From assembly GCA_013202525.1 (NCBI GenBank), contig JABMQS010000037.1:1-36801 (forward strand): a DNA stretch of 36,801 bases, written 5' to 3'. The notes under the pieces are model-generated. The model made no database searches. It had not been told where the DNA came from and saw only the letters and a program-made list of their open reading frames with translations. Below, in pieces: positions 35,183 through 35,295 of this stretch. Origin of the DNA: Candidatus Omnitrophota bacterium (lineage in GTDB: Bacteria; Omnitrophota; Gorgyraeia; JABMRG01). Position numbers and translations under genes: made by a program. Numbering within the stretch: position 1 is the first letter of the stretch; each line of letters begins with the position of its first letter.

Positions 35183-35236
35183 CACCCCGTACTTATTTGC
35201 TGATTCTGCACACATACTCCAAATAAGCACGGGGTG
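35183..35236. repeat. Long inverted repeat upstream of rnpB
   Basis: CACCCCGTACTTATTTG ... CAAATAAGCACGGGGTG, 17-nt arms with one mismatch, 20-nt loop. Confidence 0.85.
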
Positions 35237-35295
35237 AAATTCGGCATACGACTTATGAAAGGCCTGCGGCCTTACATAAGTCGTGCCCTCATTTC
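35236..35295. repeat. Structured repeat copy A, between rnpB and rnhA
   Basis: AATTCGGC-AT-ACGACTTATG-A-AAGGCC-TGC-GGCCTT-A-CATAAGTCGT-GCCCTCATT. Confidence 0.8.

What the first reader, a model, noticed from the sequence alone, without database searches (positions are those of the whole stretch)
35236..35295. Structured repeat copy A with a shared design to a copy 1.5 kb away
Copy A lies between the rnhA stop and rnpB. Copies A and B (36735-36796) share asymmetric ends AATTCGGC...GCCTCATT or GCCCTCATT, an outer GGC/GCC pair, a 2-nt bulge on the same arm (AT in A, AA in B), a long stem, and a GC-rich inner stem closed by a 3-nt loop (TGC / TAC). Stems differ by paired changes: ACGACTTATG/CATAAGTCGT versus ACAACTTAC/GTAAGTTGT. 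Covariation plus conserved asymmetric features point to a structured element under selection or mobilised as a folded single strand.
Basis: seen in the sequence. Interest (0 to 1): 0.72.

Follow-up and report, generated by a model that had tools for sequence, protein, structure and literature searches.

The report
Hairpin-ended mobile elements carrying nuclease genes
The two repeats are end-hairpins of a tiny mobile DNA element, spread through the bacterial phylum Omnitrophota and often sitting exactly at gene ends; its complete copies encode nothing but a small GIY-YIG DNA-cutting enzyme, a combination I found no earlier description of.

Summary
Copies A and B are two of about 21 copies in this Omnitrophota genome. 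The same hairpin occurs in 127 of 193 sampled Omnitrophota genomes, with 50 to over 90 copies in several. Its stem shows very strong compensatory change (98.5% of cells paired; 14 of 16 pairs change on both sides), a near-invariant tandem G·A/A·G mismatch and a 2-nt bulge. G·T pairs are almost absent (1.0%, against 6.0% in tRNAs of one host), which points to DNA rather than RNA.

Copies often form inverted pairs around a shorter inverted repeat. In 20 cases, in 14 genomes, the space between holds one small GIY-YIG nuclease ORF. The hairpins lie 15-37 bp from it on both sides; most distant GIY-YIG genes in the same genomes have none. The 5' and 3' hairpins differ in type. Copies without the ORF look like deletion derivatives, and A is one. 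About 73% of copies that follow a gene start at its stop codon.

The proposed Y1/RAYT link was tested and not found. Best reading: a REP/REPIN-like family whose full element encodes a GIY-YIG nuclease. That the nuclease drives movement is inferred, not shown.

The parts
35238..35293 (-). Copy A: left-end-type hairpin (AATGAGGGC...GCCGAATT)
   Evidence: Fold z = -7.6; covariance model hit 62.7 bits, E 3.9e-12
35183..35236 (-). Inner inverted repeat of copy A (CACCCCGTGCTTATTTG...CAAATAAGTACGGGGTG), counterpart of the arms that enclose the nuclease ORF in complete elements; about 20 nt remain inside
   Evidence: Folds as one hairpin; same position as the ACCCAGCACNAATTTT arms of other copies; similarity of the two arm sequences judged by reading
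35172..35182 (-). TTGTGTTCATT, probable remnant of the outer foot of a lost right-end hairpin
   Evidence: By reading against right-end hairpins with foot AATGAACAC; weak, short
36738..36792 (-). Copy B: left-end-type hairpin (AATGAGGCC...GGCCGAATT), 9 nt from the contig end
   Evidence: covariance model 74.7 bits, E 3.3e-15
36710..36735 (-). Second palindrome directly after copy B (TCCCGAGGAGCGGAAGCGACGAGGGA), a different repeat type
   Evidence: Read from the sequence
   Evidence: ORF list, flank reading
34741..35169 (-). rnpB (RNase P RNA, class A), starting 3 nt after the remnant
   Evidence: Rfam RF00010, 148.4 bits
36618..36691 (-). tRNA gene downstream of copy B
   Evidence: Rfam RF00005, 69.8 bits

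Best explanation
A and B are left-end hairpins of a dispersed mobile DNA element found across Omnitrophota. A complete element is roughly 400-500 bp: left-end hairpin, inner inverted-repeat arm, one small GIY-YIG nuclease ORF that starts at that arm and stops in or near the opposite arm, the opposite arm, and a right-end hairpin of a different type in inverted orientation. Most genomic copies are deletion derivatives (hairpin, short inverted repeat, hairpin) or solo hairpins; A is the first kind with its right end reduced to a remnant. Shown: hairpin architecture and covariation, dispersal, presence/absence between related species, the nuclease ORF between the hairpins, and location at stop codons and ribosome-binding sites. 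Inferred: the nuclease recognises the folded ends (bulge plus G.A pairs) on single-stranded or extruded DNA, cuts at or near the AAT/ATT foot, and host repair or replication places copies elsewhere. Insertion at gene borders is tolerated because the ends supply a stop codon (AATGA) or leave the RBS intact.
For: Hairpin covariation and rarity of G-T pairs. Spread: 127 of 193 phylum genomes. Dimer present in G058 and absent at the same site in its congener G029. GIY-YIG ORF between inner arms and both hairpins in ten elements read directly. Ten more by coordinates with constant 15-37 bp gaps; the eight best-scoring hits in the genomes checked are all doubly flanked, while most lower-scoring GIY-YIG genes in the same genomes are not. 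The model R1, built only from this genome's four copies, already finds the hairpins of the G053 nuclease elements. Left and right hairpins differ: left foot (A/G)G.. in 10 of 10, right foot with C at the second place in 9 of 10. L298 keeps only the first 36 nt of the ORF. Co-occurrence of ORF and hairpins over 193 genomes: 52/5/75/61, p 4e-7, not corrected for phylogeny. Fold neighbours include Slx1, a branched-DNA nuclease.
Against: No cutting or movement has been shown. GIY-YIG enzymes hydrolyse DNA and have no known strand-transfer step, so joining must come from the host. Most hairpin-bearing genomes have no high-scoring nuclease copy, and none was read in the window's own genome. The gene could be a passenger. 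Some ORFs are broken (L326, L328, G058).
Confidence: 0.6

Rival explanations
1. These are REPs/REPINs moved in trans by a Y1 (RAYT/TnpA-REP) or other transposase encoded elsewhere; the GIY-YIG gene is a passenger or homing gene that settled in the spacer.
For: Inverted dimers resemble REPINs. Y1_Tnp genes are common in the phylum and presence is weakly associated with the hairpins (37/4/11/7, p 0.025, uncorrected for phylogeny).
Against: No hairpin within about 1.5 kb of 32 Y1 loci. G055 has 71 copies and G052 13 with no Y1 hit. The conserved tag is AATGA(G), not GTAG. The ORF fits its inner repeats to the codon in two repeat families.
Confidence: 0.2
2. The hairpins act mainly as RNA: 3'-end stabilisers, terminators or translation-termination signals in transcripts, kept in place by selection.
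For: Stop codons touch the hairpin in 75 of 103 gene-following copies; many lie between genes of one direction (26 of 42 groups in G058, though tandem gaps are also the commonest background).
Against: G-U/G-T pairs only 1.0%. No T-run follows. Many copies lie in both orientations as dimers, where one copy would carry TC/CT mismatches in the transcript. Empty orthologous sites exist.
Confidence: 0.1
3. The covariation is a by-product of template-switch correction of quasi-palindromes at inert old repeats.
For: Flank bases -1 and -2 complement +1 and +2 even where the outer flank is host sequence such as a stop codon, as a fold-back copying process would give.
Against: The tandem GA/GA mismatch and the bulge survive in most copies across a phylum; correction alone would erase them. 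It also does not explain the ORF.
Confidence: 0.05
4. The hairpins are attC-like sites of an integron-type system.
For: Folded single strand with extrahelical bases on one arm.
Against: By reading, no GTTRRRY/RYYYAAC boxes; copies lie between ordinary genes, not in cassette arrays. Integrase not searched.
Confidence: 0.02

Closest known systems
REP / BIME / REPIN elements with RAYT (Y1 transposase)
   Same: Short imperfect hairpins with conserved tag, bulge and mismatches; high copy number; inverted dimers; mostly 3' of genes; a nuclease gene flanked by the hairpins in some copies
   Different: Tag AATGA/GAATT instead of GTAG; enclosed gene is GIY-YIG instead of Y1; an extra inverted repeat inside the dimer; left and right hairpins differ
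CGTC-tagged REPs (Di Nocera 2013, PMC3733652)
   Same: Palindromes in high copy, mostly head-to-head dimers, described as lacking a dedicated transposase
   Different: Those have 8-9 bp stems, 4-5 nt loops and a CGTC end; here longer stems, GA/GA mismatch and AATGA end. Some palindromes next to our hairpins look CGTC-like
MITEs
   Same: Non-coding deletion derivatives with terminal inverted repeats of a coding element
   Different: Ends are independent hairpins of two types; no DDE transposase and no clear target duplication
Free-standing GIY-YIG homing endonuclease genes, UPF0213 and Slx1-type GIY-YIG proteins
   Same: Same catalytic domain and fold; small, selfish or branched-DNA-cutting relatives
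   Different: Homing genes spread to homologous sites; here copies are dispersed at unrelated sites with conserved hairpin ends

Membership tests
REP/REPIN with RAYT | Dispersed short imperfect palindromes in high copy | tested here: met
   About 21 copies in the own genome, up to over 90 elsewhere
REP/REPIN with RAYT | GTAG-type terminal tetranucleotide | tested here: not met
   Conserved ends are AATGA(G) and GAATT
REP/REPIN with RAYT | Y1 transposase gene flanked by the repeats | tested here: not met
   0 hairpins near 32 Y1 loci; hairpin-rich genomes without Y1
REP/REPIN with RAYT | Inverted dimers as the mobile unit | tested here: met
   Inverted pairs in G058; whole dimer present/absent against G029
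CGTC-tagged REP | CGTC end, 8-9 bp stem, 4-5 nt loop, CCA tail | tested here: not met
   Description in PMC3733652 against alignment A4
MITE | Derivatives share ends with a coding element and lack its ORF | tested here: met
   Short spacers with the same arms as nuclease copies; L298 with 36 nt of the ORF
MITE | Target-site duplication | tested here: inconclusive
   Flanks are complementary, not duplicated; only one clean whole-dimer empty site was aligned
GIY-YIG nuclease | GIY-YIG catalytic domain over Pfam's cut-off | tested here: met
   39.4-55.6 bits against 22.6
GIY-YIG nuclease | Fold and conserved Tyr, Arg, Glu | tested here: met
   Best fold matches UPF0213, Slx1, I-TevI, best E only 1.5e-3; Y7, Y18, G20, R27, E56 invariant in A5; catalytic role assigned by analogy
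GIY-YIG nuclease | DNA cleavage activity on the hairpins | not testable with these tools
   Needs purified protein
Integron attC | GTTRRRY/RYYYAAC boxes, cassette arrays, integrase | tested here: inconclusive
   Boxes and arrays not seen by reading; no integrase search was run

The most novel reading that the evidence does not exclude
A class of bacterial mobile element whose only protein is a minimal GIY-YIG nuclease acting on strand-specific DNA hairpin ends, which settles preferentially at gene borders and gives rise to REP/REPIN-like repeats: a second route to such repeats besides Y1 transposases.
Probability: 0.5. Interest if true: 0.88.

Novelty: new variant of a known kind. Interest (0 to 1): 0.8.

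Why it matters
REP-like repeats are attributed to Y1 transposases, and some families (CGTC) have no known enzyme. Here a REP-like family encloses a different nuclease between its hairpins in 14 genomes of one phylum, which gives a concrete and cheap enzyme-substrate pair to test. It would also be among the smallest coding mobile elements (about 80 codons), and it settles at gene borders so precisely that the repeat often supplies the host gene's stop codon.

Tried and rejected
Y1/RAYT link: no hairpins near 32 Y1 loci, and a hairpin-rich genome without Y1. Rfam: only rnpB and a tRNA in the window. attC: does not fit by reading; integrase not searched. RNA terminator: no T-run and few G-U pairs. 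Generic GIY-YIG genes (for example L017 in the own genome, several in G058) were inspected and are not inside hairpin pairs, although one in G058 follows a hairpin-like sequence on one side. The 70-76 nt loops of many short dimers were examined: similar to each other within some genomes, unrelated in G058, unexplained. Replication-strand bias in G058 is weak (42 against 22, counted) and confounded with gene orientation, so not used. No exact match of a 21-nt core in viral contigs and no relative of the ORF in plasmids. Literature: no paper holds both GIY-YIG and 'repetitive extragenic palindromic'; the other searches gave nothing on such elements, but most subscription journals are not covered.

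Full report
Observation. Copy A (35238-35293) and copy B (36738-36792) are as described. On the minus strand both read AATGA-G-GCC, stem, loop, stem, 2-nt bulge, GGCC-GA-ATT. The conserved 'asymmetric ends' are part of the helix: AAT pairs with ATT on the far side of a tandem GA/GA mismatch. On the other strand the same positions would be TC/CT mismatches, so the folded strand has a direction. A covariance model from A, B and two further exact-end copies found about 21 copies in the genome, with hits in 41 of 59 relatives and, after retraining, in 127 of 193 sampled genomes of the phylum.

Structure. Over 111 copies, 98.5% of cells in the 16-pair structure are standard pairs, 14 of 16 pairs show changes on both sides, and the covariation score is 0.51 against 0.16 in shuffles and at most 0.07 when slid. 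The outer GA/GA is present in 167 of 186 copies, while the pairs around it change together (AATGAAGCC/GGCTGAATT, AATGACGGC/GCCGGAATT, AGTGAGG/CCGAACT). G-T makes up 16 of 1666 paired cells (1.0%), against 58 of 972 (6.0%) in the tRNA stems of G058. I take this as evidence for a helix that works as DNA. Flanking bases -1 and -2 complement +1 and +2 far more often than when flanks are re-dealt (32 and 35 of 43, against 13.5 and 22.4, in G058).

Composite anatomy. The single-contig genome G058, whose length of 1,974,201 bp matches the named record of Candidatus Velamenicoccus archaeovorus LiM, was read in full. Hairpins there are solo, in tandem, or in inverted pairs with the AATGA ends outward. 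Between paired hairpins there is often a second inverted repeat, ACCCAGCACNAATTTT...AAAATTNGTGCTGGGT: 14 pairs in G058, with 4 to 236 nt between the arms. About 40 such pairs exist in G035, 11 in G055, and others elsewhere. In the window, copy A is followed by a matching inner repeat (CACCCCGTGCTTATTTG...CAAATAAGTACGGGGTG, 35183-35236) and by TTGTGTTCATT, which looks like the outer foot of a lost right-end hairpin, directly in front of rnpB.

The gene. The longest spacers (232-238 nt between arms) recur in five genomes. Each holds an ORF that begins at one arm (AATTTT-ATG) and ends in the other (TAA-AATTAGTGCTGGGT), a GIY-YIG protein of 77-79 residues over Pfam's cut-off. Of nine read, two carry an in-frame stop (L326, L328) and the G058 copy lacks an intact 5' part. 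A tenth (L228, 113 residues) has a different inner repeat, ACCCTTGACATTTT. A profile of these proteins was searched over 193 genomes and the hits compared with hairpin positions. In the genomes checked, none of which supplied training rows, the eight best hits (83 bits and over) all have inverted hairpins on both sides, 15-37 bp away; so do two weaker ones, and two more have one side. The remaining 18 lower-scoring hits in those genomes have none within 60 bp, which serves as an internal control. That makes 20 doubly flanked ORFs in 14 genomes. In the ten elements read, the hairpin 5' of the ORF has a foot of the form (A/G)G.., and in nine of ten the 3' hairpin has C at the second place, so the two ends differ. 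Short dimers tend to be heterotypic too, but that count is small. L298 carries only the first 36 nt of the ORF between its arms, a deletion derivative. The predicted protein (pLDDT 84, pTM 0.64) is closest to UPF0213, Slx1 and I-TevI (best E 1.5e-3). Slx1 cuts branched DNA (established knowledge), which fits a hairpin substrate.

Where it sits. Of 186 distinct copies, 103 follow a same-strand ORF of at least 80 open codons (60 if cut by a contig end). In 75 of these the stop codon ends at position 0, +1, +2, +5 or +13 of the hairpin: the repeat touches or forms the stop codon (T|AA, TA|A, AA|TGA). In another count, 31 copies have their outer end next to a ribosome-binding site and start codon. 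A shows this pattern at rnhA. Comparison of G058 with its congener G029 shows sites with and without the element, for example a whole 144-bp dimer between GGTCA and the next gene's RBS (168139-168282), while other sites hold different repeats instead. Which state is ancestral is not known.

Mechanism. Shown: a dispersed, structure-conserved, DNA-type hairpin element with complete copies that encode a nuclease and many non-coding derivatives. Inferred: the nuclease recognises its own folded ends and cuts near the AAT/ATT foot, with host functions completing copying and joining. The flank complementarity could reflect a guide-target pairing, as in IS200/IS605 elements (from general knowledge), or fold-back copying; the data do not separate these. 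The GIY-YIG gene as a passenger of an unknown transposase remains possible.

Known or new. It works like a REPIN/MITE family but fails two tests of the classical REP-RAYT family (GTAG tag, Y1 gene between the hairpins). It does not fit the CGTC group described in PMC3733652. I found no paper linking GIY-YIG to REPs. I class it as a new variant of a known kind; if the nuclease is proved to move it, it would be a new kind.

Limits. Most genomes are MAGs, some with contamination (G035 8%). Model-based counts favour left-end-type hairpins because the model was trained on them. Co-occurrence tests are not corrected for phylogeny. No complete copy was read in the window's own genome.

Noticed in passing
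window 35169-35296: The whole rnhA-rnpB gap is made of the element, leaving no other room for an rnpB promoter; rnpB may be co-transcribed with rnhA or use a promoter inside the repeat.
   Followed up: no
window 36738-36801 (contig end) and L013, L014, L019, L020, L023 (own-genome contigs): Many of this genome's contigs end within about 200 nt of a hairpin, so the assembly probably breaks at these repeats and complete copies may be lost in the gaps.
   Followed up: partly
L010, L012-L023 (own genome): Right-end-type solo hairpins (foot GCAC/GCGC) are directly followed by other palindrome families (CATTGCGAGG.., CATCCTGAG.., CATCCCCGCG..), some of which look like CGTC-type REPs.
   Followed up: no
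G058:C1 391265-391512 and 544293-544504: Hairpin plus a short second palindrome amplified in tandem three times (92 and about 80 bp units), the later units lacking the AATGA foot.
   Followed up: no
loops of short dimers in G058 (217866, 275297, 1517709) and G035, G055: Spacers between inner arms often have nearly the same length (70-76 nt) although their sequences in G058 are unrelated.
   Followed up: partly
G065:C106 1462-2621: A GIY-YIG element flanked by a second, outer pair of inverted hairpins: a nested insertion or an assembly palindrome.
   Followed up: no
L246 697-747: One hairpin copy on a contig labelled Nitrospirae MAG: horizontal transfer or mis-binning.
   Followed up: no
own genome C24 25-144 and C144 17-144: Closely spaced copies of a related hairpin (GCATAACTTATGGAGCAAAGCGACATAAGTTAT) at contig ends.
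   Followed up: no
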